Positions 49,979 through 64,000 of a DNA stretch of 64,000 nt are shown one piece after another. Within the stretch, counting starts at the first letter, position 1. Each line of letters starts with the position of its first letter. Under the pieces are notes generated by a model, which saw only the letters and a program-made list of their open reading frames with translations, was not told the origin of the DNA and did no database searches. The stretch lies in the NCBI GenBank assembly GCA_024742485.1, contig JANSYK010000002.1:62001-126000 (forward strand), read 5' to 3'. This DNA comes from Alphaproteobacteria bacterium (GTDB lineage: Bacteria; Pseudomonadota; Alphaproteobacteria; Rhizobiales; Rhizobiaceae). The position numbers and the translations under genes were made by a program.

Positions 49979-52035
49979 GACAGCGCTCCCACGGTCACGA
50001 TGATATTGCCCTCGTCATCGCCGCGCGCCTCGTCACCCGGCTCGATCAGCACCGTCGTATCCATTTGCTCGATGATTGCCGGGCCTTTCAGCAGATAATT
50101 ATCCGGCAAACTGTCCCGCCAATAGATGGCCGTATCATGCCTTTTCCTGTCAAAGAAGACGGGGCGCTCGCCGGTTTGCGCGTCTTCCAGGTTCGCTTTG
50201 CGGCCCGCCGGGTCGATCAGCGTCGACAGATCCAGCGGTGCCCGCTCGCCAATCACCGACGTGTTGACATTCACCAGATTGGCCCGGATCTGCGCAAGCT
50301 CCACATGAAACCGGCGATAATAGGCTTCCTCGAAGAGCCGGCGCAATGTCGCCCTGTCAGGCGTCGATGTTTCCAACGGCACCCGCAGCAGATGCGACTG
50401 TCCGACAAACTGCATATCGACGCTGAACAGGTGCTTGATGCAGCGGATATCGACATTCTCTTTGCTCAAAAGCCGCTCGCCCTCGGCAATCTGCCGGGCA
50501 AAGACCGCATGGATCTGATCGATGTCGGCCAGGTCAAGCGGCCGGTTGATGGTGTTGACGAAATCGTGCCGAAGATCCGCCACCACACAGCCAATGGCAT
50601 TGGTGATCCCGGGCCGGCTGGGGACCAGAACCCGTGGCACACCAAGTTCGCGCGCCAGTGCCGAAGCATGCAGCGGTCCCGCGCCGCCAAACGCAAAGAG
50701 CGCAAAGTCCCGCGGGTCCGCGCCCAGCGACACCGACACCATGCGGATGGCGCCGGCCATCCTGGTATTGGCCATCTGGATGACCGCCGACGCGGCGCCA
50801 TAGGCGTCAAGACCGAGAGGTGCGCCGAGCCGGTCTTCGAAAATGGTCTTCACATCATCGAGGGACACCCCGCCCTCAACCGATTTGAGTTTGCCTGGAT
50901 CCAGCCGCCCGAGCAGCAGATTGGCATCGGAAATGGTTGGTTCCGTACCGCCGCGCCCGTAGCAGATAGGGCCGGGAGACGCGCCGGCACTTTGCGGGCC
51001 AACCTCCAGCAGCCCGGCTGCATTGACCCGGGCAATGGACCCGCCACCGGCACCCACTGTGCGCACATCGACCATCGGCACATGGATGGGCAGGCCATAC
51101 TCCACTTCGATCTCGCTGGAAACGGCCGGTTCGGCGCGTCGAATCAGCGCCACATCCGTCGAGGTGCCGCCCATGTCATAAGTGATCAGGTTTTTGATCC
51201 CGGCGCGGCGTCCGGTATAGGCCGCTGCAATGACGCCCGAAGCGGGTCCGGACATGACCGTCTTGGCCGCCTCCCGCGCCACCCGGCGCGACGACACCAT
51301 TCCCCCATTGCCATTCATCACCAGCACATCGCCATCATATCCGTGGGATGACAGTTCCCGGCCAAGCCGCTCGACATAGCGTTCCAGCAGGGGGCGAACC
51401 GAGGCATTCACCGCGGCGGTGACGCCGCGTTCAAATTCGCGGTTTTCGGCCAGCAGCGCATGTCCCATGGTGATGTAATCATTCGGCCAGATGGCCTGCA
51501 CGACCTCGGCGGCACGCATTTCATGGGCGGGATTGGCATAGGCATGCAGAAAGTGGATCACGATGGATTCGCAATCCGCCGCAAGCAGTTGTTCAGCCGC
51601 ACGGCGAACGCTTTCCTCATCGAGCGGGATGACAACCGCACCGCTCGCATCCATTCGCTCTGTCACCTCGAGCCGCAAATCGCGGGAAATCAGCGGTTCG
51701 AAGCGTCCCTTCATGCCATAGGCCTGGGGGCGCGTGCGCCGGCCAAGTTCCAACACATCGCGAAACCCGGCTGTGGTGATCAGGCCGGTGCGGCAAAGCT
51801 TGCGTTCAAGCACCGCATTGGTGGTGGTGGTCGTGCCGTGAACAATGAGGTCGACATCAGGCAGATGCGCCTCACTCTCGCTCAGCGCTGCCAGGACTCC
51901 GTAGGCCTGATTGTCGAGCGTGCTTGGCACCTTGGCCAGACGCACATCGCCGCCTTTCGGATCGAGCAGGATGAGATCGGTGAACGTTCCGCCGACATCG
52001 ACACCCACCACCAGACCGCGATCGGATTCCGCCAT
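49975..52035 (-). CDS. hyuA: Hydantoinase A/oxoprolinase-family subunit
   Basis: The ATG at 52035 gives 686 residues of the HyuA-type ATP-binding subunit, which has an ASKHA/acetokinase-like fold. VVGVDVGGTFTDLILLDP is the phosphate-1 loop, VHGTTTTTNAVLERK and LITYDMGGTSTDVALI are further ATP-site segments, and FGGAGPLHASALARELG is the late family motif. A 22-residue extension in the open frame lies upstream and is rejected. A palindromic GntR-like operator lies 30 bp before the start. HyuA and HyuB act together. Confidence 0.94.
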   Translation of the reverse strand: MAESDRGLVVGVDVGGTFTDLILLDPKGGDVRLAKVPSTLDNQAYGVLAALSESEAHLPDVDLIVHGTTTTTNAVLERKLCRTGLITTAGFRDVLELGRRTRPQAYGMKGRFEPLISRDLRLEVTERMDASGAVVIPLDEESVRRAAEQLLAADCESIVIHFLHAYANPAHEMRAAEVVQAIWPNDYITMGHALLAENREFERGVTAAVNASVRPLLERYVERLGRELSSHGYDGDVLVMNGNGGMVSSRRVAREAAKTVMSGPASGVIAAAYTGRRAGIKNLITYDMGGTSTDVALIRRAEPAVSSEIEVEYGLPIHVPMVDVRTVGAGGGSIARVNAAGLLEVGPQSAGASPGPICYGRGGTEPTISDANLLLGRLDPGKLKSVEGGVSLDDVKTIFEDRLGAPLGLDAYGAASAVIQMANTRMAGAIRMVSVSLGADPRDFALFAFGGAGPLHASALARELGVPRVLVPSRPGITNAIGCVVADLRHDFVNTINRPLDLADIDQIHAVFARQIAEGERLLSKENVDIRCIKHLFSVDMQFVGQSHLLRVPLETSTPDRATLRRLFEEAYYRRFHVELAQIRANLVNVNTSVIGERAPLDLSTLIDPAGRKANLEDAQTGERPVFFDRKRHDTAIYWRDSLPDNYLLKGPAIIEQMDTTVLIEPGDEARGDDEGNIIVTVGALS

Positions 52036-52064
52036 GAATTCAGTGTACCCCAAGAATCGGATTA

Positions 52065-52082
52065 TTGTTTGTATACAAACAA
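52065..52082. promoter_or_regulatory. GntR-like operator upstream of hyuAB
   Basis: TTGTTTGTATACAAACAA is a perfect 18-bp palindrome 30 bp upstream of hyuA. Half-sites TTTGTA/TACAAA recur at 54448-54463 and 60411-60428 and, weakly, at 52952-52965. Here the two half-sites abut, while the other sites have a 4-bp centre. Confidence 0.65.
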
Positions 52083-52133
52083 AAACCACCGCATGAGTCA
52101 AAGGATGGTTTTGGCCGTCGGATCGTGCTGGTC

Positions 52134-52931
52134 CTAGCGGACAACAATCGTGGTTTGAGCGGTCACCGGTTCGTCACCAACCACATAAGCGCGGTGATCA
52201 TTGGTATTCAACGTCACGCGAACCGTGTGTTCTCCAACCGGCAATGGTCCGATTTCTGTCACCGGCTCGTAGAGCCGCCTGATTTTCAGGCCGCCCACAT
52301 AAAGGTGGCCATGGCCGACACCGGGAATGTGATCGGTTCCGGTCAGGTGTTCGGCAAAGGTGAACTCCCGCGCATCCACCATGATGCGCCAGCCGCCATT
52401 GTCCGGGATCGGTTCAGTCCGCACGGATACCGCCGGAGCCGGTTCACCATCCTCAACGCGGCAAATGCTGCCAATGCCGAACACTCCATGTTGCCCGGCA
52501 TCGCCCGGTGTAACCGGTGCCGACAGCCGCGCCCGCGATGTGATCGTCCCGGCCTTTTCGAAAGTCAGCGCAATCGGGAACAGCCGGCCGTCATCGATCG
52601 GACCTTCCACGCCACGCAGCAAAACATGTGCTCCATCCGCGGCCAGGGAGGGCGATGTGCCCGCCGGCACCGGGATTCCGGATTCTGATTCCGGATTGTA
52701 GAGGATCGTTTCGGTAGCGTCATGAGCCTTGGCGGACAAGAGCCTGTCCGGACCGCCACGATTGTCGATTTGCAGAAACACGACCAGCGAATCGGCTGCC
52801 TGGCCTTCGAGCTGCGCCGCCTGGACATTTTGCAGAAGCATGTCCCGTCCCGCCGGATCGAAGATGCGCATGGCGGTCCAGCCAATGGCGACCAGCACGA
52901 CCAGCAACACGATCGGACGAAGAAGTTTCAT
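52134..52931 (-). CDS. Exported PCuAC-like protein with a His-rich C-terminal domain
   Basis: The ATG at 52931 gives 265 residues, with an N-terminal membrane anchor or signal segment (LLRPIVLLVVLVAIGWTAM). Residues about 45-160 resemble the periplasmic copper chaperone PCu(A)C: VVFLQIDNRGGPDRLLSAKAH, then VPAGTSPSLAADGAHVLLRGV and PIALTFEKAGTITSRARL. Of the usual copper ligands the Met residues are missing, and the His-x-Met is His-x-Leu. The remaining domain (about 195-250) is rich in His: EHLTGTDHIPGVGHGHLYV and NTNDHRAYVV. It is divergent from the polytopic membrane protein with an operator-like site between them. A metal-handling role is plausible but unproven. Confidence 0.7.
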   Translation of the reverse strand: MKLLRPIVLLVVLVAIGWTAMRIFDPAGRDMLLQNVQAAQLEGQAADSLVVFLQIDNRGGPDRLLSAKAHDATETILYNPESESGIPVPAGTSPSLAADGAHVLLRGVEGPIDDGRLFPIALTFEKAGTITSRARLSAPVTPGDAGQHGVFGIGSICRVEDGEPAPAVSVRTEPIPDNGGWRIMVDAREFTFAEHLTGTDHIPGVGHGHLYVGGLKIRRLYEPVTEIGPLPVGEHTVRVTLNTNDHRAYVVGDEPVTAQTTIVVR

Positions 52932-52951
52932 TTGTGCGGAACCTGCCTGTT

Positions 52952-52965
52952 CTGTATGCATCAAG
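52952..52965. promoter_or_regulatory. Partial GntR-like operator between divergent genes
   Basis: CTGTATGCATCAAG matches about 10 of 14 bases of the TTGTATGCATACAA pattern. It lies 21 bp from the PCuAC-like start and 37 bp from the membrane-protein start, so a regulator could control both. It is weaker than the other three sites. Confidence 0.4.
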
Positions 52966-53002
52966 CATGTTTCATTCCTGAAAACAGGTCAATACGGTTC
53001 GT

Positions 53003-54418
53003 TTGCAGCACACGGTTTCACGTCTCGTAGCGGTCTTTTTGGCTCTGGTTCTTGCCGGCCCGGCCGCAGCCCATGTTTCGCAACAGGGCTTTGTCCTCCT
53101 GTTGCCGACCAATGTCTACATGACAGCGGGCATCTGGGTCGTTGCAGTGACCGCTTTGGCGATCGCTTTCACACCCGGTGATGTCGGCGAACGCCTGTTT
53201 TCGACCCTTGCCCTGCCGAAAATCCCGGCGCCACACTGGGAAACGGTTACCAGCCTGCTGGCCTTCCTGTTCCTGTGCTGGCTCGTGTCGATGGGGTTGA
53301 GCGGATCGCGCGATCCACTGGCCAATCCGCTGCCATTGTTCATCTGGACAGTGTTCTGGATCATGCTGGTGATTGTTCAGGCCGTCATCGGCAATCTGTG
53401 GCACTGGATCAACCCGTGGACGGGCATTGCGCGCCTGCTGTTCGCCAACCCGCGCAGACGTCCGATCCTTGCTTGGCCCGCATGGCTTGGCTCCTGGCCG
53501 GCCATAGTCGGACTGCTTGCCTTTTCATCTTTCGTGCTGGCCGATCCAGCGCCCGATGATCCGGCGCGGCTCGCCATGATTGTCGCCGGATACTGGCTTT
53601 TCACCATGGTGGCGATCCTGGTGTTCGGCGAGCGCCAGTGGCTGGCAAGGGGTGAGTTCCTGACCATCCTGATGCGCCATTTTGCGTCGCTCGCGCCGTT
53701 GCGGCTCGGACGGCGCGCCTCTTGTCTGGGCGCACCCGCATGGCAATTGCTAAGCGCTGCGCCGCATTCGGCAAGCGCCGGCATTTTCGTCCTTATCCTG
53801 CTGGGGACCGGCAGTTTTGATGGCCTCAACGAAACCTTCTGGTGGCTGTCGCTGATCGACGTCAATCCGCTCGAATTTCCCGGCCGCTCGGCCATCATCA
53901 CTGAAACGGTCACAGGACTGCTTCTGACGAACACATTGCTGGTCCTCGCCTTTGCCATCCTGGTCTGGACAGGCCATCGCATGGCGACCCGGAGGGTCTT
54001 GCCTGCCGAGCGCACCGGCTATCGGGATGTTTTTGGAAAACTTTGCCTGTCCACTCTGCCGATCGCCCTTGCCTATCATGTGGCCCATTATCTGACCGTT
54101 GTGCTTGTGAACGGACAATACGCGCTGGCCGCCGCCAGCGATCCCTATGCCATCGGTGCGGACTATCTCGGTCTGGGCACGTTTTATGTGACCACCGGCT
54201 TCTTCAACAGCCGCGACACCGTGCAGGTGATCTTCCTGACACAGGCCGGAGCCGTGGTTCTGGGGCACGCCATTGCCATCCTCATTGCCCACGCCATCGC
54301 CCTGCGGATTTACGGACAAAACAGGCTTGCGGTGATCAGCCAAATCCCCGTTGCCGCCTTCATGATAGCCTACACCTTTCTCGGCCTCTGGCTTCTGGCT
54401 GCGCCCAAGGGGGCTTGA
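53003..54418 (+). CDS. Polytopic membrane protein of unknown function
   Basis: This 471-residue protein is not a family I can name. It starts with a signal-like segment (TTG start; RLVAVFLALVLAGPAAAHVSQQ) and has roughly ten to eleven membrane segments. Residue patterns such as NLWHWINPWTGIARLLFANPRRRP and HVAHYLTVVLVNGQYALAAASDPYAIGADYLGL are conserved-looking loops. The His in AAHVSQQG just after the signal and HVAHYL and GHAIAILIAHAIAL give many His residues near membrane faces. Its divergent neighbour is PCuAC-like, so metal transport is a guess. It precedes the ABC importer, whose operator lies just after its stop. Confidence 0.75.
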   Translation: MQHTVSRLVAVFLALVLAGPAAAHVSQQGFVLLLPTNVYMTAGIWVVAVTALAIAFTPGDVGERLFSTLALPKIPAPHWETVTSLLAFLFLCWLVSMGLSGSRDPLANPLPLFIWTVFWIMLVIVQAVIGNLWHWINPWTGIARLLFANPRRRPILAWPAWLGSWPAIVGLLAFSSFVLADPAPDDPARLAMIVAGYWLFTMVAILVFGERQWLARGEFLTILMRHFASLAPLRLGRRASCLGAPAWQLLSAAPHSASAGIFVLILLGTGSFDGLNETFWWLSLIDVNPLEFPGRSAIITETVTGLLLTNTLLVLAFAILVWTGHRMATRRVLPAERTGYRDVFGKLCLSTLPIALAYHVAHYLTVVLVNGQYALAAASDPYAIGADYLGLGTFYVTTGFFNSRDTVQVIFLTQAGAVVLGHAIAILIAHAIALRIYGQNRLAVISQIPVAAFMIAYTFLGLWLLAAPKGA

Positions 54419-54447
54419 CGAACCGCCGGTAATCGGAGAACAATTTG

Positions 54448-54463
54448 TTTGTATGCATACAAA
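54448..54463. promoter_or_regulatory. GntR-like operator upstream of the ABC importer operon
   Basis: TTTGTATGCATACAAA is a perfect 16-bp palindrome, 51 bp before the start of the solute-binding protein gene. The same half-sites flank the hyuAB and molybdenum-hydroxylase starts. Confidence 0.65.
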
Positions 54464-54514
54464 ATCGACCGTTGGTCCTAGGCAGGACAAGCGGTAAAAA
54501 CAGGGAGAACAGCG

Positions 54515-55819
54515 ATGCCGATCATCAAGAAACCGTCACGATTGGTGACCCGCCGATCCGCACTCAAGGGGCTGGCCGTTGGCACCGGCGCCGTCGCCGC
54601 AGCAGGCACATTGCCGGGATTTGTGCGTTATTCGCAGGCCCAGAGCTCCGAACCGATCCGCATCGGGTTCCAGGTGCACAGGACAGGCATCGGCGCGGCC
54701 TATGGGCGTTGGTATGACCGCACAACACAAGCTGCCACCAAGGCGATTAATGATGCCGGCGGCATCAATGGACGGCCGGTCGAAATCATCGCGGAAGATG
54801 ACGGTACCGATCCGAAGCGTGGCGCGGAAGTCGTCGAGAAATTTGCCAGCCAGCACAATTGCGACCTGGCCTTCGGTACCCTGTTCAGCCACGTTGTATT
54901 CGGCTCGGCGCCACGGGCTGGGGAGCTGAAAATCCCCTATTTCGTGGTTTCCGAAGGCCATCACGTGGCCAGCGGAAAGCTCAATCGCTACACGCTGCAG
55001 CCCGGCATTACCGATGTGAAAAGCCAGGTCCAGGCGATGGCGCCCTTCGTTTCCGACAATCTCGGCAAGAAGGTCACCATGATCTATCCGGATTTTGCCT
55101 TCGGCCACGATCACCGCGACTATTTCTCCGCGGCGCTGGAACAGCAGGGAGGCGAGGTGATCGCCAAGATCGCGATCCCGCCAACCGAATCCTCCTTCAC
55201 CAAATACTTCCCGAAGATCCCCCGCGATACGGAAGTCATCTATCACGTCATGGTCGGTCCGGCCGTGCTGACCTTCGTCAAGGAAATGGGCGAATTCTAC
55301 GGTCCGAACAAGCCGGAAATCTTCGGCTTCATCGACAGCCTGGAAGCCGTCGACATGGCCAGCCCCGGCCTTGAATTCCTGGAAGGCTCCTATTTCTGGG
55401 AAGGCAATCCGCGCTACGCGCAAAAGGATCAGTCAACCTATGACAAGGACTACCGTGCCGCCGTTGGTGTCGACGACAATGGTGCATCGGTTTCCGATCC
55501 CAAGGACGTGTCGACCTATTCCCACATGTTCGGCTGCTGGGAAACGCTCTACACCATCAAGGACGGCATGGAAGCGGCCGGCTACAAGGGGCCGGAGGAC
55601 CGCACCAAGTTGATCGAGGCAGTGGAATCCATCACGGATATCCCCCATTCGGCGGAACATCCGCAGGGCGCCAAGATCTTCAACGGCAAAACCCACCAGG
55701 TCTTCGGCCATCAGTACATTTCCAAGGTGAAAGACGGCAAGCTCGAGCTGGCCCACACAACATCGATCGAAGACACGCTCTACGACGATGAGGTGGATTA
55801 CACGACCCAGCCCTTCTGA
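54515..55819 (+). CDS. ABC importer solute-binding protein (amide/urea/branched-chain type)
   Basis: This 434-residue periplasmic binding protein of the HAAT family carries a twin-arginine export signal: RLVTRRSALKGLAVGTGAVAAAGTLPG, cleaved near AQS. The mature part has IRIGFQVHRTGIGAAYGRWYDRTTQAATKAINDAGGINGRPVEIIAEDDGTDPKRGAEVVEKF, the type I fold signature over residues 46-110. GEHH-like VVSEGHHVASGKLN is a binding-pocket segment. Its relatives take up amides, urea or branched-chain amino acids; substrate here is unknown, perhaps a hydantoin or lactam. A GC hairpin follows before the permease genes. Confidence 0.92.
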   Translation: MPIIKKPSRLVTRRSALKGLAVGTGAVAAAGTLPGFVRYSQAQSSEPIRIGFQVHRTGIGAAYGRWYDRTTQAATKAINDAGGINGRPVEIIAEDDGTDPKRGAEVVEKFASQHNCDLAFGTLFSHVVFGSAPRAGELKIPYFVVSEGHHVASGKLNRYTLQPGITDVKSQVQAMAPFVSDNLGKKVTMIYPDFAFGHDHRDYFSAALEQQGGEVIAKIAIPPTESSFTKYFPKIPRDTEVIYHVMVGPAVLTFVKEMGEFYGPNKPEIFGFIDSLEAVDMASPGLEFLEGSYFWEGNPRYAQKDQSTYDKDYRAAVGVDDNGASVSDPKDVSTYSHMFGCWETLYTIKDGMEAAGYKGPEDRTKLIEAVESITDIPHSAEHPQGAKIFNGKTHQVFGHQYISKVKDGKLELAHTTSIEDTLYDDEVDYTTQPF

Positions 55820-55840
55820 CCCGGTTTCATAAGGCAAAAG

Positions 55841-55861
55841 CGCCCCGCCATCGGCGGGGCG
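55841..55861 (+). terminator. GC hairpin between binding protein and permease
   Basis: CGCCCCGCC pairs perfectly with GGCGGGGCG across a 3-base loop ATC, 22 bp after the binding-protein stop. No T-run follows. It may attenuate or stabilise the binding-protein message, which is usually needed in excess over the permease. The downstream arm also contains the GGCGGGG most like a Shine-Dalgarno for the permease gene. Confidence 0.6.
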
Positions 55862-55871
55862 TGTGATTCGC

Positions 55872-56753
55872 ATGGATCTAGGACCCTATCTACTCCTGGC
55901 CTCTCTGGAAGGGGCGGTGGCCGCTGCCGTCCTCGCGCTGACGGCGGTCGGGCTCAGCCTGGTATTCGGCGTCATGCGGGTCGTCAATGTCGCCCATGGC
56001 GAATTCTTCATGCTGGGCGCCGTGCTTGCCTGGTGGTTTGCATCTCTGGTCGCCGGCCATCCGGCATTCGGTTTCGTATTGGCCCTCATCTGCGCACCGC
56101 TGATCGCCGCCGTCATCGCAGCCGCCGCCGATTATTTTGTCCTCAAGCGGCTCAACTATGATCCCGAAGCGACCATCGTCGCGACCATCGGCCTCCTTTA
56201 CATCATTCAGCAAACGGTCCTGATGACCTATGGTCCGGACGCACGTCCGGTCGAAGCGCCCTTCAATGCGCGCATCTATTTGCCCTGGTTCGGATATTCG
56301 ACCTACAAGTTCTTCGTCATCGGCGCGGCGATCGTGCTGCTCATCGGCGTCTGGATCATGCTCACCAAGACCCGCATCGGCCTCGTCCTGCGTGCCAGCC
56401 AGCTGGACTCCGAAATGGCGCTCGCCTTCGGCATCAAGGTCGACCAGGTCTATGCCATGGTGTTCGGCCTCGGGGCCGGTCTTGCCGCCATGGCCGCTGT
56501 CCTTGTGGTGCCGATCCAGCAGGCCCACTATCTGATGGGCGGCGATCCGCTCCTCCTGTCCTTTATCGTCGTCATCATCGGCGGGCTCGGCAGCATTGCC
56601 GGAACAGTCGTTGCCGCGATCCTCATCGGCATGAGTGACGGGATCATTTCGGTATTCTTCTCGCCGACCCTGGCCAAGATCATCGCCACTCTGCTTGTCG
56701 CCTTCGTGCTGATTTTCAGGCCAACCGGTCTCTTCGGGAAGCGGAGCATATGA
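55872..56753 (+). CDS. ABC importer permease (LivH type)
   Basis: This 293-residue membrane subunit has about eight helices. The family signature is LVFGVMRVVNVAHGEFFMLGAVLAWW, and QQTVLMTYGPDARPVEAPF and the EAA-like loop LRASQLDSEMALAFGIKVDQVYAM fit LivH-type permeases. The ATG at 55872 is preferred; an in-frame GTG at 55863 is inside the hairpin region. The stop overlaps the next gene by 4 bp. Confidence 0.93.
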   Translation: MDLGPYLLLASLEGAVAAAVLALTAVGLSLVFGVMRVVNVAHGEFFMLGAVLAWWFASLVAGHPAFGFVLALICAPLIAAVIAAAADYFVLKRLNYDPEATIVATIGLLYIIQQTVLMTYGPDARPVEAPFNARIYLPWFGYSTYKFFVIGAAIVLLIGVWIMLTKTRIGLVLRASQLDSEMALAFGIKVDQVYAMVFGLGAGLAAMAAVLVVPIQQAHYLMGGDPLLLSFIVVIIGGLGSIAGTVVAAILIGMSDGIISVFFSPTLAKIIATLLVAFVLIFRPTGLFGKRSI

Positions 56754-57694
56754 GCGCCGCTGCGAAATCCGTGTGGCTGCATGGTGGTGTGATCACACTT
56801 CTCTTTGCCTTGCAATTCGTGCTGCCGGCCTATCATCACGGCAATCTCGCACGGATCATGGTGCTGGCGGTTTACGCCATGGGTTACAACATGCTGTTTG
56901 GCTACACGGGGCTCCTCAGCCTTGGCCACGCATTGTTTTTCGCCGCCGGCATGTATGGGCTGGGGCTAACCATCGCCTTCCTTGATTTTGCACCGTCGCC
57001 GGCTCTCTTGTCCGGCATCATTTCGGCCCTGATCGTTTCGGCAGTTGTCGGATTTCTGGCCCTGCGCACCACCGGTGTCGCCTTCATGATCGTGACATTG
57101 ATGTTCGCCCAGGCCGGATTCCTGACCATCCTGTTGTTCGGGGAATACACGCGCGGGGATGAGGGATTTGTCATTCAGCAGCCTGAACGCGTGCTGGCCG
57201 GAATTGACCTGACAACACCCGGCAACCGCTATTTTGCCGCTCTCATCCTGTTTTCCGTCTGTTTGATCATAACAGCACGGGTCGTCCAGACGCCGTTCGG
57301 CAAGGTACTGATCGCGATACGCGAAAATGAAGACCGGGCGCGTATGCTTGGCTATGACGTGCTGCGGCACAAATTGATCGCGGTGATCATATCGGGCACC
57401 ATGTCAGGCGCCGCCGGCGCCGCCTATGCCCTGCTTTTCGGCTATGTCGGCGCCAGTTTCGCCGCCGTGCAATATTCGATCTTCCCGCTGCTGTGGGTGC
57501 TTCTGGGTGGCGCCGGAACGACCATCGGACCGTTGGTCGGCACCATCTTCATGTTCTACCTGATCGACCTGTCGAGCGGCCTGACCTCGGCCTATATGCT
57601 GATCGCCGGTGTCACGCTTGTGCTGCTGACCCTGTTTGCAAGACAGGGACTCGTCGGCGAATTGCGCAAGAGGGCATTGCCATGGCTGCCCTGA
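56750..57694 (+). CDS. ABC importer permease (LivM type)
   Basis: This 314-residue second permease has about nine helices. MGYNMLFGYTGLLSLGHALFFAAGMYGLGL is the LivM signature, and the coupling loop is IRENEDRARMLGYDVLRHKLIAV. It partners LivH and the two ATPases. It overlaps the upstream gene by 4 bp and the ATPase gene by 13 bp. Confidence 0.94.
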   Translation: MSAAAKSVWLHGGVITLLFALQFVLPAYHHGNLARIMVLAVYAMGYNMLFGYTGLLSLGHALFFAAGMYGLGLTIAFLDFAPSPALLSGIISALIVSAVVGFLALRTTGVAFMIVTLMFAQAGFLTILLFGEYTRGDEGFVIQQPERVLAGIDLTTPGNRYFAALILFSVCLIITARVVQTPFGKVLIAIRENEDRARMLGYDVLRHKLIAVIISGTMSGAAGAAYALLFGYVGASFAAVQYSIFPLLWVLLGGAGTTIGPLVGTIFMFYLIDLSSGLTSAYMLIAGVTLVLLTLFARQGLVGELRKRALPWLP

Positions 57695-58404
57695 ACCTCC
57701 TGACCACAAAGGGTCTGTCGCGCAACTTCGGCGGGCTCTGGGCTGTCCACAATGTGGATTTCGAGCTGCCGGAAGGACAGGTCCGGGCACTGATCGGCCC
57801 CAATGGCGCCGGCAAATCGACCTTTGTCGGTCTGCTTTGCGGCCGTATTCCCGCAAGCAGCGGTTCCGTGCAGTTCGATGGCCGGGACGTCACGGCTCTG
57901 CCGGCCCACAAACGCATTGCGCTGGGAATGGCCTACACGTTCCAGATCACCTCGATTTTCGCGAAACTGTCACTTTGGGAAAATGTCGCGCTGGCCGTTC
58001 GGCGCAAGCATCATGGCGATGCAAATGCTGTCGAGGGTGGTGTGAAGGCCGCATTGTCACGCGTCGGCCTTGCCGACCGGGCGGATCAACTTGCCGGCGA
58101 TCTGAGCTATGGCCATCAACGCCTTCTCGAAATTGCCATGGGTCTGGGTCAGCAGCCACGCCTGTTGATTCTCGATGAGCCGACACAGGGACTGGCGGAA
58201 AGCGAAGTTGACGATTTCAAGAAACTGGTCCGGAATTTAGCCGGCGAAACAACGGTTCTCCTCATCGAGCACAATATGGATGTGGTGATGGATACGGCGG
58301 ACATGATCACGGTGTTGAATTTCGGTGAAGTCCTGGCCGAGGAAACGCCCGAAACCATTCGCGACAACAGCGCCGTTCAGGCGGCTTATCTGGGGACCGG
58401 ATGA
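57682..58404 (+). CDS. ABC importer ATPase (LivG type)
   Basis: The ATG at 57682 gives 240 residues. Walker A is GPNGAGKST, Walker B is LLILDEPTQGL and the switch His is in LLIEHNMDVVMD. The signature region reads DLSYGHQRLLEIAMGLG, with Tyr replacing one Gly, a common LivG-group variant. FQITSIFAKLSLWENVALAV is the LivG-type Q-loop segment. It overlaps the LivM gene by 13 bp and the LivF gene by 4 bp, so the import genes form one tight operon. Confidence 0.94.
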   Translation: MAALNLLTTKGLSRNFGGLWAVHNVDFELPEGQVRALIGPNGAGKSTFVGLLCGRIPASSGSVQFDGRDVTALPAHKRIALGMAYTFQITSIFAKLSLWENVALAVRRKHHGDANAVEGGVKAALSRVGLADRADQLAGDLSYGHQRLLEIAMGLGQQPRLLILDEPTQGLAESEVDDFKKLVRNLAGETTVLLIEHNMDVVMDTADMITVLNFGEVLAEETPETIRDNSAVQAAYLGTG

Positions 58405-59099
58405 TGCTGGACGTACGAGGCATCAATGTGGGTTACGATCAGGTGCAGGTCCTGTACGACCTGTCTTTGACCGCCAGGCCCGGTGAGATTCTCTGCCTGC
58501 TTGGCCGCAATGGCGCCGGCAAGACAACGACCATGAAGGCCATCATGGGTCTTTTGCCGCTGCGGTCCGGGTCGGTTCTGCTGGACGGAGAGGATATCAG
58601 TGCCCTGCCGGCCTACGAGGTCCCGCGCCGGCGCATTGCCTATGTCCCGCAGGGCAGACGGCTGTTTTCCGAACTGACTGTTGCTGAAAACATCGAAATT
58701 GGTCTGATGGTGCGTGATGCCGGCAAGGCGACACGGGATCGGGTCCTCGACATTTTCCCGCGCCTGCGTGAGCGCCTCGATCAGCGCGCGGAAACGCTGT
58801 CCGGTGGCGAGCAGCAGATGTTGGCCACAGCCAGGGCCCTTTGCATCGAGCCGCAGGTGCTTCTGCTCGATGAACCGACCGAAGGGTTGCAACCCTCAAT
58901 GATCGAACAGATCCGCCAGGTGATCGTGCAGATGAAAAGCGAAAATGTGGCCATCATTCTGGTGGAACAGCGCGTCGACGCTGTCCTGTCAATCGCCGAT
59001 CAGGTGGCCTTCATCGAAAATGGCCGAAACCTGGAGACCCTGGAGGCGGAGGCGCTGCGCCAGGACCCGTCGAAACTGACGCGCTATCTGGGTGTGTGA
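58401..59099 (+). CDS. ABC importer ATPase (LivF type)
   Basis: This 232-residue ATPase has Walker A GRNGAGKTTTMK, the LivF-type Q-loop VPQGRRLFSELTVAENIEIG, the signature LSGGEQQMLATARALC and Walker B LLLDEPTEGLQP. The H-loop is ILVEQRVDAVLS. It is the last gene of the importer and convergent with the nicotinamidase gene over a 102-bp gap, in which no terminator stands out. Confidence 0.94.
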   Translation: MMLDVRGINVGYDQVQVLYDLSLTARPGEILCLLGRNGAGKTTTMKAIMGLLPLRSGSVLLDGEDISALPAYEVPRRRIAYVPQGRRLFSELTVAENIEIGLMVRDAGKATRDRVLDIFPRLRERLDQRAETLSGGEQQMLATARALCIEPQVLLLDEPTEGLQPSMIEQIRQVIVQMKSENVAIILVEQRVDAVLSIADQVAFIENGRNLETLEAEALRQDPSKLTRYLGV

Positions 59100-59201
59100 C
59101 GGCGCACGGAGACACAGTTGACCTGTCTGTGAAATCACGGCCTGCGGTCGAATTCATCGGCCCATTTTGGCTATGCCGATATCGCGAATACTTGAATAAA
59201 T

Positions 59202-59831
59202 CTAGGAAAACACGTCACTGGTCACGAACCGCACACCATTGCGATCCATATCTTCCATCGCCGCCGCCAATGATCCTTCCAGATCGATGGCCCGGCAGCA
59301 ATCGGTCACCAGCATCGCCTCGAACCCGAGGCGCTTGGCATCAAGTGCCGAATAATAGACGCAGAAATCCGTGGCCAGCCCGGTCAGCACGACCTGCTCC
59401 ACGCCCCGTTCGCGCAGATAGCCGGCAAGGCCGGTCTGTGTTGTCTTGTCATTCTCGAAAAACGCCGAATAACTGTCGATACCGGGGCGAAATCCCTTGC
59501 GGATAACCAGATCTGCACCGTGGGCAACAAGATCCGGATGGAAATCGGCACCCTGGCTGCCGCGCACACAATGTTTGGGCCACAGAACCTGATCGCCATA
59601 ATGCATTTTCGTCAGGCTGAAGGGTGTGGCGCTGTCGTGATTGTCGGCAAAGGAACTGTGTTCGTCGGGATGCCAGTCCTGGGTCAGGATGCAAATCTCG
59701 AATTTTTCGAGAAGATCGTTGACGGTCGGAACAATGGCATGGCCATCGGCGACCTCCAGGGCACCACCGGGGCAAAAATCATTTTGCACATCAATGACCA
59801 GTAGAGCGGCGTTGTCGATATTGACTCCCAT
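59202..59831 (-). CDS. pncA: Nicotinamidase/isochorismatase-fold amidase
   Basis: This 209-residue cysteine amidase hydrolyses nicotinamide to nicotinate. The catalytic triad is visible: Asp14 in LLVIDVQNDFCPGG, Lys112 in LVIRKGFRPGIDSYS and Cys157 in LATDFCVYYSALDA. The metal site Asp52/His54 is in LTQDWHPDEHSSF, and WPKHCVRGSQGADFHP is a PncA signature, so the PncA assignment is better supported than a generic isochorismatase. It lies 18 bp after the MarR gene on the same strand. Next to a molybdenum hydroxylase it could feed nicotinate-type ring hydroxylation. Confidence 0.92.
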   Translation of the reverse strand: MGVNIDNAALLVIDVQNDFCPGGALEVADGHAIVPTVNDLLEKFEICILTQDWHPDEHSSFADNHDSATPFSLTKMHYGDQVLWPKHCVRGSQGADFHPDLVAHGADLVIRKGFRPGIDSYSAFFENDKTTQTGLAGYLRERGVEQVVLTGLATDFCVYYSALDAKRLGFEAMLVTDCCRAIDLEGSLAAAMEDMDRNGVRFVTSDVFS

Positions 59832-59849
59832 GCAGATCTCCCGTGACAG

Positions 59850-60299
59850 TTACCTCGATTTGATCATTTTGCCGAGAAGCGCGGCAAGCTGCATCCGCTC
59901 ACGGCTGTTGAGCGGCGCCAGTGTTTCCTCGGTGATGGCGTGCGCCGAAAGAACATTGCTGTGAAAAGCAGCCTCTCCGGCGGCAGTGAGCTCCACCAGC
60001 AGCCGGCGCATATCGGTCGGATCGGGACGGGTGGAGACCAGCCCCTTCTTGCTCAGACGGTCGATGACACCCTTCATGGTGGCCGCATCCATGGCGGTCT
60101 GACGGCCAAGGTCGTTCTGCGACACCGTACCGATCTCGAATATCTTGGCCAGTGTCGCAAATTGTGTGGGTGTGTACTCGTCGATGTGCCGGCCGAAAAT
60201 GGAAAGGTGCCGCTGATTGGCCTGCCGCATCAGGAAGCCGATCTGTTCATCAAGCCTGTAGTCGATCTCGGTATCTGTTTGCCGTTGGGGCGTTGCCAT
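59850..60299 (-). CDS. MarR-family regulator
   Basis: This 149-residue winged-helix regulator has the MarR core: TPTQFATLAKIFEIGTVSQNDLGRQTAMDAATMKGVIDRLSKKGLVSTRPDPTDMRRLLVELTAAG in residues about 48-115. The D-x-R-x-x-x-V/L wing is present. It is transcribed just upstream of pncA and divergently from the molybdenum hydroxylase genes, so it is a candidate for local control, perhaps sensing an aromatic acid. The GntR-like palindrome nearby is of a different type. Confidence 0.92.
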   Translation of the reverse strand: MATPQRQTDTEIDYRLDEQIGFLMRQANQRHLSIFGRHIDEYTPTQFATLAKIFEIGTVSQNDLGRQTAMDAATMKGVIDRLSKKGLVSTRPDPTDMRRLLVELTAAGEAAFHSNVLSAHAITEETLAPLNSRERMQLAALLGKMIKSR

Positions 60300-60410
60300 T
60301 CAATTTCCTCAAAGCTGCACGTGGACCACCTGCTTCCGACCGGTCATCGTCAGGAGCCACTTTACCAAGCCGGACGGATATTGACACCCAAAGGGCACTA
60401 AGGCAAATTC

Positions 60411-60428
60411 ATTTGTATGCGAACAAAT
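60411..60428. promoter_or_regulatory. GntR-like operator upstream of the molybdenum hydroxylase genes
   Basis: ATTTGTATGCGAACAAAT matches the palindrome at 54448-54463 in 14 of 16 core bases. It ends 23 bp before the start of the FAD-subunit gene. Confidence 0.55.
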
Positions 60429-60451
60429 AATTTCGCCCTGTCACTGTCTGT

Positions 60452-61327
60452 ATGAACGCGGAGGCGATGGATTTGGGCTATGTACGCCCCACCAGTCTGA
60501 CCGATGCGCTGACCTGCCTTGCCGGCAATGATATGCGGGTGGCCGCCGGCTGTACCGATCTGTTCCCGGCGACCGGCCATCAGCATCTTGCGGGAAACAT
60601 TCTCGATATCACCGCCCTTTCGGCGTTGCGCGGAATCACCAATGATAGCGACCATCTGCGTATCGGCGCCACCACCACCTGGAGCGACATTGTGCAGGCG
60701 GACCTGCCGCAAGGTTTTCACCAGCTCCAGCAGGCGGCCCGGGAAGTTGGTTCCATCCAGATCCAGAATGCCGCGACGATCGGGGGAAATCTGTGCAATG
60801 CCTCGCCGGCCGCCGATGGTGTGCCGCCCCTCCTGGCCCTCGACGCCCTGGTCGAACTGTCCAGCCTGACCGGAACCCGTACTCTTCCGCTGGCGCAATT
60901 CATAACCGGACCGCGAGAAACCGGCTTGGCATCCGGTGAACTGCTGACCGCCTTGCTGATACCGCAGCAGTCGACCCGGGGCCGGTCCGTCTTCCTGAAA
61001 CTCGGCGCGCGCAGATATCTCGTCATATCGATCGCCATGATCGCGGCACGGCTGGTCGAAACGGACGGACAAATCAGCGACGCGGCGATTGCCGTCGGAT
61101 CCTGCAGCGCCGTCGCAACACGGCTGAAGGCCGTTGAAAACGAATTGATCGGACAGGTGCCTTCCCCCGATCTTGTACACCGGATCAGCGACGGCAGCAT
61201 TCGGCAGCATCTGGCACCAATCACCGATACCCGAGCCGATGCGCCCTATCGCAACATAGCCGCGGCCGAACTCGTTCGACGGGCATTGGGTCAGCTCCTT
61301 GCCGATCATCAGCAGGAGGCGGCATGA
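60452..61327 (+). CDS. Molybdenum hydroxylase FAD-binding subunit
   Basis: This 291-residue CoxM/XdhB-type subunit has the FAD-binding motifs RVAAGCTDLFPATGHQ (first loop), IGATTTWSDI, and IQNAATIGGNLCNASPAADGVPPLLALDA. The C-terminal domain includes VFLKLGARRYLVISIAMIA. It would pass electrons from the iron-sulfur clusters to NAD or another acceptor. Its stop overlaps the next gene by 4 bp. The substrate of the complex could be nicotinate, a purine or another N-heteroaromatic. Confidence 0.93.
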   Translation: MNAEAMDLGYVRPTSLTDALTCLAGNDMRVAAGCTDLFPATGHQHLAGNILDITALSALRGITNDSDHLRIGATTTWSDIVQADLPQGFHQLQQAAREVGSIQIQNAATIGGNLCNASPAADGVPPLLALDALVELSSLTGTRTLPLAQFITGPRETGLASGELLTALLIPQQSTRGRSVFLKLGARRYLVISIAMIAARLVETDGQISDAAIAVGSCSAVATRLKAVENELIGQVPSPDLVHRISDGSIRQHLAPITDTRADAPYRNIAAAELVRRALGQLLADHQQEAA

Positions 61328-64000
61328 CACCGCCCGAAGCCATCAATCTGACCATCAATGGCGAAGCGCTGAGCCTGCCGCCCCGGCCCGGCCGGCGGCT
61401 CAGCCATGCTCTGCGCGAAGATGCCGGATTGCGCGGCACCAAGGTCGGCTGCGACGCCGGTGATTGCGGTGCCTGTACGGTGCTCATGGACGGCGATCCT
61501 GTTTGCGCCTGCCTCACCCCGCTCATTCAGGCGTCCAATCGGTCGGTGACCACGGTCGAGGGTCTCTCGTCCGAGACGCTTTCGCCTTTGCAGGAGGCGT
61601 TTCTTCGCCATGGCGCGGCGCAATGCGGCATCTGCACGCCGGGCATGCTGATGGCGGCAGCCGCATTGTTGGACACCGTGGCGCAGCCAAGCCGGACCCA
61701 GGTCGAGGACGCGCTCGGCGGCGTGTTGTGCCGCTGTACGGGCTACCAGAAGATTGTCGATGCGGTGCTGAGTGTCGGCACACCGTCTGAAAAACCCGCC
61801 ACCCCGGATGCGGGCCGCGCGGTAGGTGCCCGCATCGAACGGCTTGACGGCACGCGCAAGGTCGATGGTTCCGAGGTTTTCGGAGCCGATTTCTGGCCGC
61901 AGGATGCATGGCTGGTCCGCGCCATACGGTCCCCGCATCATCAGGCGACGTTCACATTTGGCGACATCGATACCTGGGTCGGCACACATCCCGGTGTCGA
62001 ATCCGTTCTCACCGCGGCGGATATTCCCGGCACCAACCGGTTTGGGGTGATCCCGCCTCTTGCCGACCAGCCCGGTCTTGCCGAAAGCCGGGTGCATTTT
62101 CGCGGCGAAGCGATCGCAGTCATCGCCGGCGCAGCCGATGCGGTCGAAGCGCTCGACCTGTCGGATTTTCCGGTCAACTGGTCCCCCGCCACCGAGGTGC
62201 TGACGACGGAGCAAGCGCTGGATGCAGCGCTCATTCATCCGTCCCGACCGGGCAATATTCTGATCAATGGTCGTGTCGCCACCGGCGATCCGGACACCGC
62301 CCTCGCGGGTTCGGCCCATGTGGTCGAGGCTTCGATCGAAACGGGCTTTGTCGAACATGCCTATATTGAACCGGAAGCCGGCGCCGCGTGGATGGATGGG
62401 GACATGCTGGTCATCCAGGCCTGTACCCAGGCCCCGGTGATGGATCGCGACGACATCGCGGTGATGATGAATCTTGATGCTGACAAGGTGCGGATCATGC
62501 CGGCGGCCGCCGGTGGCGGCTTTGGCTCCAAGCTCGACCTGTCATTGCAGCCGCTGATTGCCCTTGTCGCCCTGAAAACCGGCAAACCCTGCCGGATGGT
62601 CTATAGCCGCGGCGAATCCATGGCGTCGACCACCAAACGCCATCCGGGCGCCATGACCGCCAGGATCGGGTCCGATGCCGATGGCCGCATCACCGGCATG
62701 ACCTTCCATGGCGATTTCAATACCGGCCCCTATGCCAGTTGGGGGCCGACGGTCGCGACCCGTGTGCCGGTCCATGCCTCGGGTCCGTACCGAACCCCGC
62801 ATTACCGCGCCACGACCCGCGCCATCCACACCAATGGGCCCGTCGCCGGCGCCTTTCGCGGCTTCGGGGTTCCGCAGGCGGCGATCCTGCAGGAGACGCT
62901 CTACGATGAACTGGCCAATGCCGGCGGCATGGACCGGCTGGAATTTCGCAAACGCAACGCCTTGCATGACGGTGAACGGACCGTCTGCGGTCAGACGTTG
63001 CACGGGGTCGGTATCGCCGAATGCCTGGAAGCGCTTGAGCCGCGCTGGCATGCGGCAGCAGCTGAAATCCGTGCCTTCAACAAGGGATCGGCGGTGCGAA
63101 AGCGCGGCATGGGCGTTGCCAGTTGCTGGTATGGCTGCGGCAACACCGCCTTGCCGAATCCGTCAACGGTACGCCTGGGTTTTTGCGCTGACGGACGATT
63201 GAAACTGCATCAGGGTGCGACGGATATCGGCCAGGGATCGAACACCGTGATCACCCAGATCTGCGCCGACGCGTTGGGGCTTCCGATCGATGCTTTCGAA
63301 TTGATTGGTCCCGATACGGCACTGACGCCCGATTGCGGCAAAACGTCCGCATCGCGCCAGACCTATGTAACCGGCAAGGCTGCGGAAAGAGCGGGACAGG
63401 CGTTGCGGGCGCAAATCCTTCGGCTGAGCAACAAGGGCAACGATGCCAAGCTCCGTCTGGATGGGCACAATGTGCTGGTCGACGACGGTCAGACCACCCA
63501 GTCGATTTCACTGGCCGCTTTGCCCGTGGATGAATTTGGATACGCCTTATCCGTCGAAGAAACCTATGATCCGCCCACAACACCGCTCGATGAGGACGGG
63601 CAGGGCGTACCCTATGCGGTCTATGGTTACGGCGCCCAATTGGCGGAAGTCGAGGTCGATCTGGCGCTTGGGACCGTGCGGGTCGTCGCGGTCACGGCCG
63701 CCCATGATCTTGGCCGTGTCATCAATCCACTTCTGGCCGAGGGACAGATCGAGGGTGGCATTGCACAGGGGCTGGGCCTTGCCCTGATGGAAGAATTCAT
63801 TCCGGGCGCTTCGGAAAATCTCCATGACTATTTGATCCCGACAATCGGCGACATGCCGGCAATCCGGTCCATTCTCATTGAAAAACCCGATCCGGAAGGG
63901 CCGATGGGCGCCAAAGGACTGGGTGAGCACGTCCTGATCCCCACCGCGCCGGCAATTCTCAACGCGATCCACCACGCCTGCGGAGCACGGATCACCAAGG
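61324..64000 (+). CDS. Fused 2Fe-2S / molybdopterin hydroxylase subunit (3' end outside window)
   Basis: The reading frame runs uninterrupted for at least 892 codons and leaves the window. Residues 1-155 are the small-subunit module with two 2Fe-2S clusters: GCDAGDCGACTVLMDG, then CGICTPGML and GVLCRCTGYQKIVDAV. From about residue 165 the molybdopterin part begins: RLDGTRKVDGSEVFGADF, GGGFGSKLDLSL, VAGAFRGFGVPQAAILQE, and GPMGAKGLGEHVLIPTAPA near the end, which carries the Glu expected as catalytic base. Such fusion of the two subunits occurs in some aldehyde oxidoreductase/xanthine dehydrogenase relatives. Only the last few dozen residues seem to be missing. The substrate is unassigned. Confidence 0.93.
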   Translation, partial: MTPPEAINLTINGEALSLPPRPGRRLSHALREDAGLRGTKVGCDAGDCGACTVLMDGDPVCACLTPLIQASNRSVTTVEGLSSETLSPLQEAFLRHGAAQCGICTPGMLMAAAALLDTVAQPSRTQVEDALGGVLCRCTGYQKIVDAVLSVGTPSEKPATPDAGRAVGARIERLDGTRKVDGSEVFGADFWPQDAWLVRAIRSPHHQATFTFGDIDTWVGTHPGVESVLTAADIPGTNRFGVIPPLADQPGLAESRVHFRGEAIAVIAGAADAVEALDLSDFPVNWSPATEVLTTEQALDAALIHPSRPGNILINGRVATGDPDTALAGSAHVVEASIETGFVEHAYIEPEAGAAWMDGDMLVIQACTQAPVMDRDDIAVMMNLDADKVRIMPAAAGGGFGSKLDLSLQPLIALVALKTGKPCRMVYSRGESMASTTKRHPGAMTARIGSDADGRITGMTFHGDFNTGPYASWGPTVATRVPVHASGPYRTPHYRATTRAIHTNGPVAGAFRGFGVPQAAILQETLYDELANAGGMDRLEFRKRNALHDGERTVCGQTLHGVGIAECLEALEPRWHAAAAEIRAFNKGSAVRKRGMGVASCWYGCGNTALPNPSTVRLGFCADGRLKLHQGATDIGQGSNTVITQICADALGLPIDAFELIGPDTALTPDCGKTSASRQTYVTGKAAERAGQALRAQILRLSNKGNDAKLRLDGHNVLVDDGQTTQSISLAALPVDEFGYALSVEETYDPPTTPLDEDGQGVPYAVYGYGAQLAEVEVDLALGTVRVVAVTAAHDLGRVINPLLAEGQIEGGIAQGLGLALMEEFIPGASENLHDYLIPTIGDMPAIRSILIEKPDPEGPMGAKGLGEHVLIPTAPAILNAIHHACGARITK

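What the first reader, a model, noticed from the sequence alone, without database searches (positions are those of the whole stretch)
52065..60428. A candidate GntR-like regulon: repeated TTTGTA/TACAAA palindromes before hyuAB, an importer, a metal-protein pair and a molybdenum hydroxylase
Seen directly: TTGTTTGTATACAAACAA (52065), TTTGTATGCATACAAA (54448), ATTTGTATGCGAACAAAT (60411) and the weaker CTGTATGCATCAAG (52952) each lie 21-52 bp upstream of a start codon. Such TTGTATNNATACAA-type dyads are typical of GntR/FCD regulators (family knowledge). The inference is that one regulator outside this window unites functions that look unrelated into one catabolic system. Half-site spacing differs (0 bp at 52065, 4 bp elsewhere), which is unusual and worth testing.
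Basis: partly seen in the sequence, partly recalled or inferred. Interest (0 to 1): 0.7.

Follow-up and report, generated by a model that had tools for sequence, protein, structure and literature searches.

The report
A MarR-controlled vitamin B3 breakdown regulon
The repeated DNA palindromes are very probably the switches of a vitamin-B3 (nicotinate) breakdown system run by a repressor gene that sits inside the window, not by a GntR regulator elsewhere, and they point to two interchangeable parts of that pathway.

Summary
The three strong palindromes are real and far above chance, but the GntR reading is not supported. All three fit one 20-bp palindrome, TTYRTTWGTATACWAAYRAA (P20), with one centre, so the reported spacing difference disappears. 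It resembles BpsR, the 6-hydroxynicotinate-responsive repressor, and keeps 3 of its 4 ligand contacts. Just past the window end lies 6-hydroxynicotinate reductase (Hnr), so the cluster is the nicotinamide/nicotinate-to-THON pathway. The operator recurs before orthologous genes in held-out genomes. Of 55 named Hnr loci tested it is in 34 of 43 that carry the MarR and 0 of 12 that lack it. Two inferences look new. First, HyuAB and enamidase replace each other as Hnr's partner: at the identity cut-offs used, 30 of 31 Hnr genomes have one, and the only genome with both has two Hnr loci. So HyuAB is probably the ring-opening lactamase. Second, the operator also sits by ferredoxin reductase genes and, in three genomes, before a 2-oxoacid:ferredoxin oxidoreductase, plausible electron sources for Hnr. 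DNA binding, ligand response and enzyme activities are untested.

The parts
52064..52083 (.). operator upstream of hyuAB (ATTGTTTGTATACAAACAAA; 1 mismatch to P20)
   Evidence: P20 with <=3 mismatches in 43 of 50 hyuA/Fpr/Ena promoter gaps (which includes this one)
54444..54463 (.). operator upstream of the HAAT-type ABC importer (TTTGTTTGTATGCATACAAA; 2 mismatches)
   Evidence: importer promoters in other loci: 15 of 37 gaps with a site of the 16-bp pattern. A weak promoter-like match (9 of 12) ends at 54444, the operator's first base
60408..60427 (.). operator between marR and the Mo-hydroxylase operon (TTCATTTGTATGCGAACAAA; 2 mismatches)
   Evidence: P20 with <=3 mismatches in 46 of 77 coxM promoter gaps (which includes this one)
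52952..52965 (.). degenerate site between PCuAC gene and membrane-protein gene; better copy in sister species G003
59850..60299 (-). MarR-family regulator, BpsR-like; proposed 6-hydroxynicotinate-responsive repressor
   Evidence: Pfam MarR; PDB 2nnn E=2e-36, 6pcp/6pco E~1e-22; pocket residues
59202..59831 (-). nicotinamidase (PncA-type)
   Evidence: NCBIfam nicotinamidase model 208.6 bits, cut-off 174; PDB nicotinamidase 2wt9 E=3e-74
60452..61327 (+). FAD subunit of Mo hydroxylase, proposed nicotinate dehydrogenase
61324..64000 (+). fused 2Fe-2S/Mo subunit of the hydroxylase; continues past the window end
54515..55819 (+). substrate-binding protein of the importer
55863..57694 (+). two importer permeases (55863-56753 and 56750-57694)
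57682..59099 (+). two importer ATPases (57682-58404 and 58401-59099)
49975..52035 (-). HyuA-type subunit (oxoprolinase/caprolactamase superfamily); proposed THON lactamase
48233..49978 (-). HyuB-type subunit
52134..52931 (-). PCuAC-domain protein with one N-terminal hydrophobic segment; role unknown
53039..54418 (+). conserved protein with about 11 hydrophobic segments, often just upstream of the importer; no Pfam or NCBIfam match

Best explanation
The palindromes are operators of a local MarR-family repressor (59850-60299) that controls nicotinamide/nicotinate catabolism. Proposed mechanism: without inducer the MarR dimer sits on the 20-bp palindromes before hyuAB, the importer and the divergent marR-hydroxylase intergene and blocks transcription. 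When nicotinate arrives, basal hydroxylase makes 6-hydroxynicotinate, which binds the MarR pocket, opens the dimer and releases the DNA. The genes then form a route: the importer brings in substrate; nicotinamidase makes nicotinate; the Mo hydroxylase makes 6-hydroxynicotinate; Hnr (just past the window) reduces it to 1,4,5,6-tetrahydro-6-oxonicotinate (THON) with reduced ferredoxin (recalled enzymology); HyuAB opens the THON lactam at the cost of ATP. Shown by computation: motif, conservation, genomic distribution, gene families. Inferred: MarR binding, repression, ligand, importer and hydroxylase substrates, and the HyuAB step.
For: A site lies between marR and the hydroxylase. Of 101 genomes, 30 have both Hnr and this MarR (>=90 bits), 2 the MarR alone, 1 Hnr alone, 68 neither. 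First-reader pattern (<=3 mismatches) in 134 promoter gaps of 31 other regions: 33 hits, reversed control 1, shuffle mean 0.91. P20 (<=3) before hyuA/Fpr/Ena in 43 of 50 gaps, coxM 46 of 77, other promoters 3 of 518, reversed pattern 0 in every class. Genome-wide P20 (<=2): 24 of 31 Hnr genomes (48 sites, control 7) against 4 of 70 others (6 sites, control 8). In 55 named loci: operator in 34 of 43 with the MarR, 0 of 12 without. G027, with this MarR but no Hnr, has a perfect P20 site beside nicAB-like genes. A second Hnr cluster in this genome on contig C144 has a MarR paralogue (46%) and operators too. BpsR contacts Tyr15, Arg26, His32 are kept as Y14, R25, H31 in 33, 33 and 29 of 33 orthologues. 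HyuA and Ena alternate as Hnr partners.
Against: BpsR His23 is Phe here and in 29 of 33 orthologues, so the ligand mode may differ. In 9 of 43 named loci with the MarR no site with <=3 mismatches was found; 7 of 31 Hnr genomes have no P20 site with <=2 mismatches. G091 has Hnr and a P20 site but no MarR >=90 bits (fragmented genome). Importer promoters match P20 less often: 4 of 37 at <=3, 14 of 37 at <=4. A MarR paralogue exists in the genome, so which of the two binds which sites is open. P20 was written after viewing part of the regions, so counts that include them (in part) are partly circular; related species are not independent. No binding, expression or enzyme data exist.
Confidence: 0.88

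Rival explanations
1. A GntR/FCD regulator encoded elsewhere binds the palindromes.
For: The genome encodes 40 FCD-domain matches, one about 27 kb from the C154:2485517 operator; a palindrome of this kind is compatible with GntR/FCD operators by recalled family knowledge.
Against: No FCD gene lies near the window cluster (nearest on C102 about 380-390 kb away) and none on C144. In named loci the operator follows the MarR gene: 34 of 43 with, 0 of 12 without. A site lies in the marR divergent intergene.
Confidence: 0.05
2. The MarR paralogue on contig C144, not the window MarR, is the main binder, or both share the sites.
For: The C144 cluster has the same operator class next to its own MarR (46% identical).
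Against: Sister species G003 has one high-scoring MarR of this kind (260 bits; its next listed match is 39 bits) and the same operators at hyuA, SBP and coxM.
Confidence: 0.1
3. The MarR and operators are real, but HyuAB acts on another compound (a hydantoin or other lactam) that is co-induced, and THON is opened by an unidentified enzyme.
For: HyuAB lies outside the Hnr operon in this cluster and far from it in some genomes; no substrate has been measured; family members act on several lactams and hydantoins.
Against: HyuA of this type (>=57% identity) is found in 24 of 31 Hnr genomes and in 0 of 70 others, and is nearly exclusive with enamidase (one search scored only the best 11 candidates in most genomes).
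Confidence: 0.3
4. Chance palindromes in AT-rich intergenic DNA.
For: Single matches do occur by chance.
Against: Shuffles, reversed-pattern controls and the cross-genome footprints.
Confidence: 0.01

Closest known systems
BpsR of Bordetella (MarR-family, 6-hydroxynicotinate-responsive repressor of nic genes)
   Same: MarR family, sequence similarity (PDB 6pcp E=6e-23; that 6pcp/6pco are BpsR is recalled), nicotinate catabolism context, Tyr/Arg/His pocket contacts kept (passages of PMC6837509)
   Different: the His23 contact is Phe here; the controlled pathway is the Hnr/THON route with HyuAB; operators not compared (no BpsR operator sequence in the passages read)
NicR of Pseudomonas putida
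   Same: MarR-type repressor of nicotinate genes (passages of PMC10269826)
   [quoted passage not shown] different pathway after 6-hydroxynicotinate
NadQ, predicted NAD-biosynthesis regulator of Alphaproteobacteria
   Same: vitamin-B3-related regulon inferred by comparative genomics (passages of PMC5343134)
   Different: other protein family and another palindrome (ttATRCTCannntGAGYATaa)
Nicotinate degradation cluster of Azorhizobium caulinodans / Bradyrhizobiaceae SG-6C (THON route)
   Different: 'enamidase', 'hyu' and 'MarR' do not occur in that text; its Figure 4 could not be seen; here HyuAB takes the ring-opener place in the window cluster
Enamidase (PDB 2vun)
   Same: the second cluster of this genome (C144) encodes a homologue (E=2e-105) with operators upstream
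   Different: the window cluster has HyuAB instead
ATP-dependent lactamases: caprolactamase CapAB, oxoprolinase OplAB
   Same: same HyuA/HyuB superfamily; OplAB opens the six-membered delta-valerolactam (abstract of PMC11033972)
   Different: substrate here inferred to be THON; scores (497 and 323 bits) are well below the CapA/CapB cut-offs of 1000, so not caprolactamase

Membership tests
   40 FCD matches, none near the window cluster or on C144
BpsR-type MarR nicotinate repressor | MarR winged-helix domain | tested here: met
   Pfam MarR 44.3 bits, cut-off 24.6
BpsR-type MarR nicotinate repressor | 6HNA contacts Tyr15, His23, Arg26, His32 | tested here: inconclusive
   3 of 4 kept; His23 is Phe
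BpsR-type MarR nicotinate repressor | gene linked to nicotinate catabolic genes | tested here: met
   co-occurrence with Hnr: both 30, MarR only 2, Hnr only 1, neither 68 of 101 genomes
BpsR-type MarR nicotinate repressor | 6-hydroxynicotinate releases it from DNA | not testable with these tools
   needs EMSA or reporter
THON-route nicotinate degradation cluster | 6-hydroxynicotinate reductase | tested here: met
   gene at C102:126128-127549 just past the window; 26 plasmid records match at 60-80% identity, 16 of the 25 listed annotated so
THON-route nicotinate degradation cluster | Mo-dependent nicotinate hydroxylase | tested here: inconclusive
   domains and subunits fit but no curated model reaches its cut-off; substrate inferred
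THON-route nicotinate degradation cluster | enamidase as third step | tested here: not met
   the only enamidase-type match in this genome (E<=1e-60) is in the C144 cluster; the window cluster has HyuAB
HyuAB ATP-dependent lactamase superfamily | Hydantoinase_A and Hydantoinase_B domains | tested here: met
HyuAB ATP-dependent lactamase superfamily | ATP-dependent lactam hydrolysis of THON | not testable with these tools
   needs enzyme assay

The most novel reading that the evidence does not exclude
One MarR operator marks a nicotinate pathway with two swappable slots. The THON ring is opened either by an ATP-dependent HyuAB lactamase (new function) or by ATP-free enamidase. The reduced ferredoxin that Hnr needs in these aerobes is delivered either by a ferredoxin-NADP reductase or by a regulon-captured 2-oxoacid:ferredoxin oxidoreductase (KorAB).
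Probability: 0.4. Interest if true: 0.68.

Novelty: new variant of a known kind. Interest (0 to 1): 0.55.

Why it matters
It gives a testable operator and regulator for nicotinate catabolism in Alphaproteobacteria, assigns a likely substrate (THON) to a clade of HyuAB proteins annotated only as hydantoinase/oxoprolinase, and offers a candidate answer to how aerobic bacteria power a reductase that, by recalled enzymology, needs low-potential reduced ferredoxin.

Tried and rejected
GntR/FCD regulator: rejected. Varying half-site spacing: first read as two overlapping 16-bp registers offset by 4 bp, then replaced by one 20-bp palindrome, which fits better across genomes. Other genome hits of the 16-bp pattern: five looked at; three lie inside called ORFs (C44:317301, C44:317417, C120:822801), two between genes (C102:1563519, C102:1825641), none pursued. 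C102:1563519 lies about 400 bp from an FCD match but is a poor match (TTTTTATCGATAAAAA). The weak P20 site C154:1709823 (3 mismatches) lies between two genes and was not pursued. Promoter scan: 2 promoter-like matches (shuffle mean 0.5) in 52000-54520, one ending at the importer operator; none in 60280-60480; not decisive. G026:C12 site: next to a 1372-aa autotransporter, no clear link. That Fpr and KorAB exclude each other is not claimed: ferredoxin reductase homologues are widespread (68 of 101 genomes at E<=1e-60). Prior reports of this operator, or of HyuAB as THON opener, were sought in the held library; none seen in the listings or in the passages read, but most subscription papers are not held, among them the BpsR paper asked for.
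Full report
OBSERVATION. Pattern TTTGTATNNATACAAA with up to 3 mismatches gives 5 matches at 3 places in the window; 100 shuffles average 0.65 and none reaches 5. In the 6.87-Mb genome, up to 2 mismatches gives 11 positions against 5 for the reversed pattern; the only two with at most 1 mismatch are in the window.

GENES. Pfam and NCBIfam give: hyuB, hyuA, a PCuAC-domain protein, an unassigned protein with about 11 hydrophobic segments, a branched-chain-type ABC importer (binding protein, two permeases, two ATPases), a nicotinamidase over its curated cut-off, a MarR-family regulator, and FAD plus fused 2Fe-2S/Mo hydroxylase subunits. The finding did not mention the MarR and the nicotinamidase. 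Just past the window end (C102:126128-127549) lies a protein with 26 plasmid matches at 60-80% identity, 16 of the 25 listed annotated 6-hydroxynicotinate reductase, Hnr. UPF0280-like and AA_synth proteins follow. A paper describes this kind of cluster, going through THON, in Azorhizobium and Bradyrhizobiaceae (passages of PMC3511419). The cluster is therefore nicotinamide/nicotinate catabolism.

REGULATOR. The MarR is divergent from the hydroxylase and a palindrome lies between them. Its nearest solved relatives are 2nnn (E=2e-36) and 6pcp/6pco (E~1e-22). That 6pcp/6pco are BpsR is recalled and agrees with the residue numbering in the BpsR paper (passages of PMC6837509). BpsR contacts 6-hydroxynicotinate by Tyr15, His23, Arg26 and His32. 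The window MarR has Y14, F22, R25 and H31. Of 34 orthologues aligned (one truncated; one pair, G070 and L072, looks identical; G019, G050 and G080 not included) Y and R are kept in 33 of 33 and H in 29 of 33; the His23 position is F in 29, Y in 3, H in 1. Of 101 genomes, 30 have both Hnr and this MarR (>=90 bits), 2 only the MarR (G027, G085), 1 only Hnr (G091), 68 neither.

FOOTPRINTS. It gave 9, 17 and 33 hits at up to 1, 2 and 3 mismatches; reversed controls 0, 1 and 1; shuffle means 0.00, 0.05 and 0.91. With named loci added and the window left out: 18 of 75 hydroxylase promoters, 15 of 37 importer promoters, 14 of 37 hyuA/Fpr promoters, 7 of 421 other promoters, 1 of 125 convergent gaps; reversed 0, 1, 1, 1 and 0 (six regions dropped as duplicates, badly called or chosen for other reasons, plus the window). 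Reading the sites showed a longer palindrome P20, TTYRTTWGTATACWAAYRAA. With up to 3 mismatches P20 occurs in 43 of 50 hyuA/Fpr/Ena gaps, 46 of 77 coxM gaps, 4 of 37 importer gaps, 1 of 34 Hnr gaps, 3 of 518 other promoters and 0 of 171 convergent gaps; reversed 0 in every class (these counts include the window and the regions from which P20 was read). The three window sites fit P20 with 1, 2 and 2 mismatches and one centre.

FURTHER TESTS. (a) Genome-wide: a looser 16-bp pattern (TTTGTWYRYRWACAAA, up to 1 mismatch) gives 57 sites against 22 reversed in the 31 Hnr genomes and 72 against 89 in the other 70. P20 with up to 2 mismatches gives 48 against 7 in 24 of 31 Hnr genomes, and 6 against 8 in 4 of 70 others. 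One of these four, G027, has this MarR, nicAB-like genes and a perfect P20 site. Against: G091 has Hnr and a site but no MarR at >=90 bits. P20 with up to 3 mismatches is in 34 of 43 with the MarR in the fetched stretch and 0 of 12 without. In all 78 non-duplicate loci there are 52 hits against 2 reversed. (c) In five genomes hyuAB lies on another contig or more than 160 kb away; all five carry P20 with up to 2 mismatches, but these were among the regions from which P20 was read, and the separate hyuA copies of G096 and G097 were not examined. Species are related, so p-values overstate significance.

OWN REGULON. P20 with up to 3 mismatches gives 9 sites in the genome, reversed 1: three in the window, four on contig C144, one at C154:2485517 (1 mismatch) and one weak at C154:1709823. 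C144 holds a second Hnr cluster with a MarR paralogue, a ferredoxin reductase gene, and an amidohydrolase matching the solved enamidase 2vun (E=2e-105) instead of HyuAB.

RING OPENER SWAP. Of 31 Hnr genomes, 24 have HyuA at >=57% identity and 7 an enamidase at >=70%. One (this genome) has both and has two Hnr loci. One (G091, about 770 contigs) has neither at these levels. None of the 70 other genomes has either at these levels (in most genomes one search scored only the best 11 candidates). Against: G058 has HyuA plus an enamidase-like gene at 61%; G016, without Hnr, has one at 55%; G097 has enamidase plus a HyuA at 52%; G064, G080 and G097 have further amidohydrolases at 39-42%; G088, without Hnr, has a HyuA at 44%. 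THON is a six-membered lactam; a HyuAB-type enzyme, OplAB, opens delta-valerolactam with ATP (abstract of PMC11033972). I infer that HyuAB here opens THON.

ELECTRON SUPPLY. Hnr is recalled as ferredoxin-dependent. A ferredoxin reductase gene (Fpr) lies at operator-bearing gaps in many loci, often divergent from hyuA or Ena. The C154 site precedes a korAB pair (alpha subunit over its NCBIfam subfamily cut-off, beta subunit below it), divergent from an aldehyde-dehydrogenase-like gene, and is conserved in sister species G003. Of 16 korA matches listed, 13 upstream regions were examined. P20 with up to 2 mismatches is in 3 (G000, G003 and the distant G091), all Hnr genomes. It is absent from 8 of 8 without Hnr, three of them same-genus relatives at 81-83% identity, and from G080 and G097, which have Hnr. 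In G080 korAB lies just 3' of the Hnr genes on the same strand. G000:C24, G069 and G096 copies were not examined.

WEAK FOURTH SITE. In G003 the aligned stretch reads TGTATGCATACAAACATG; the window differs by a one-base gap and substitutions, so here it is either decayed or never complete.

VERDICT. A BpsR-like MarR regulon for nicotinate catabolism, not a GntR regulon. The parts are of known kinds; the operator, the HyuAB/enamidase alternation and the korAB link were not seen in the held library (searches), which lacks most subscription papers.

Noticed in passing
L061 (G000:C144:1-20000): A second Hnr cluster with enamidase homologue, TAXI/TRAP transporter genes and a quinolinate-phosphoribosyltransferase-family gene with a weak operator (3 mismatches) upstream; GC 57.7% against 60.3% in the 40 kb around the window cluster.
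   Followed up: partly
window 53039-54418: Conserved protein with about 11 hydrophobic segments, no Pfam or NCBIfam match, often directly before the importer genes; a candidate channel or accessory transporter.
   Followed up: partly
L063:2678-4085 (past the window end): UPF0280-like and AA_synth (PF06684) proteins follow Hnr in many of the loci examined, sometimes with two AA_synth copies; function unknown.
   Followed up: partly
named loci such as L133, L137, L138, L145, L154: 12 of 55 named Hnr loci lack both this MarR (within the fetched stretch) and the operator; their regulator is unknown.
   Followed up: no
L121:9928 (G026:C12): An isolated operator-like palindrome upstream of a 1372-aa autotransporter gene.
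   Followed up: partly
L220:5625-7361: Aldehyde-dehydrogenase-like 578-aa protein divergent from korAB across an operator; possibly a later step of the pathway.
   Followed up: no
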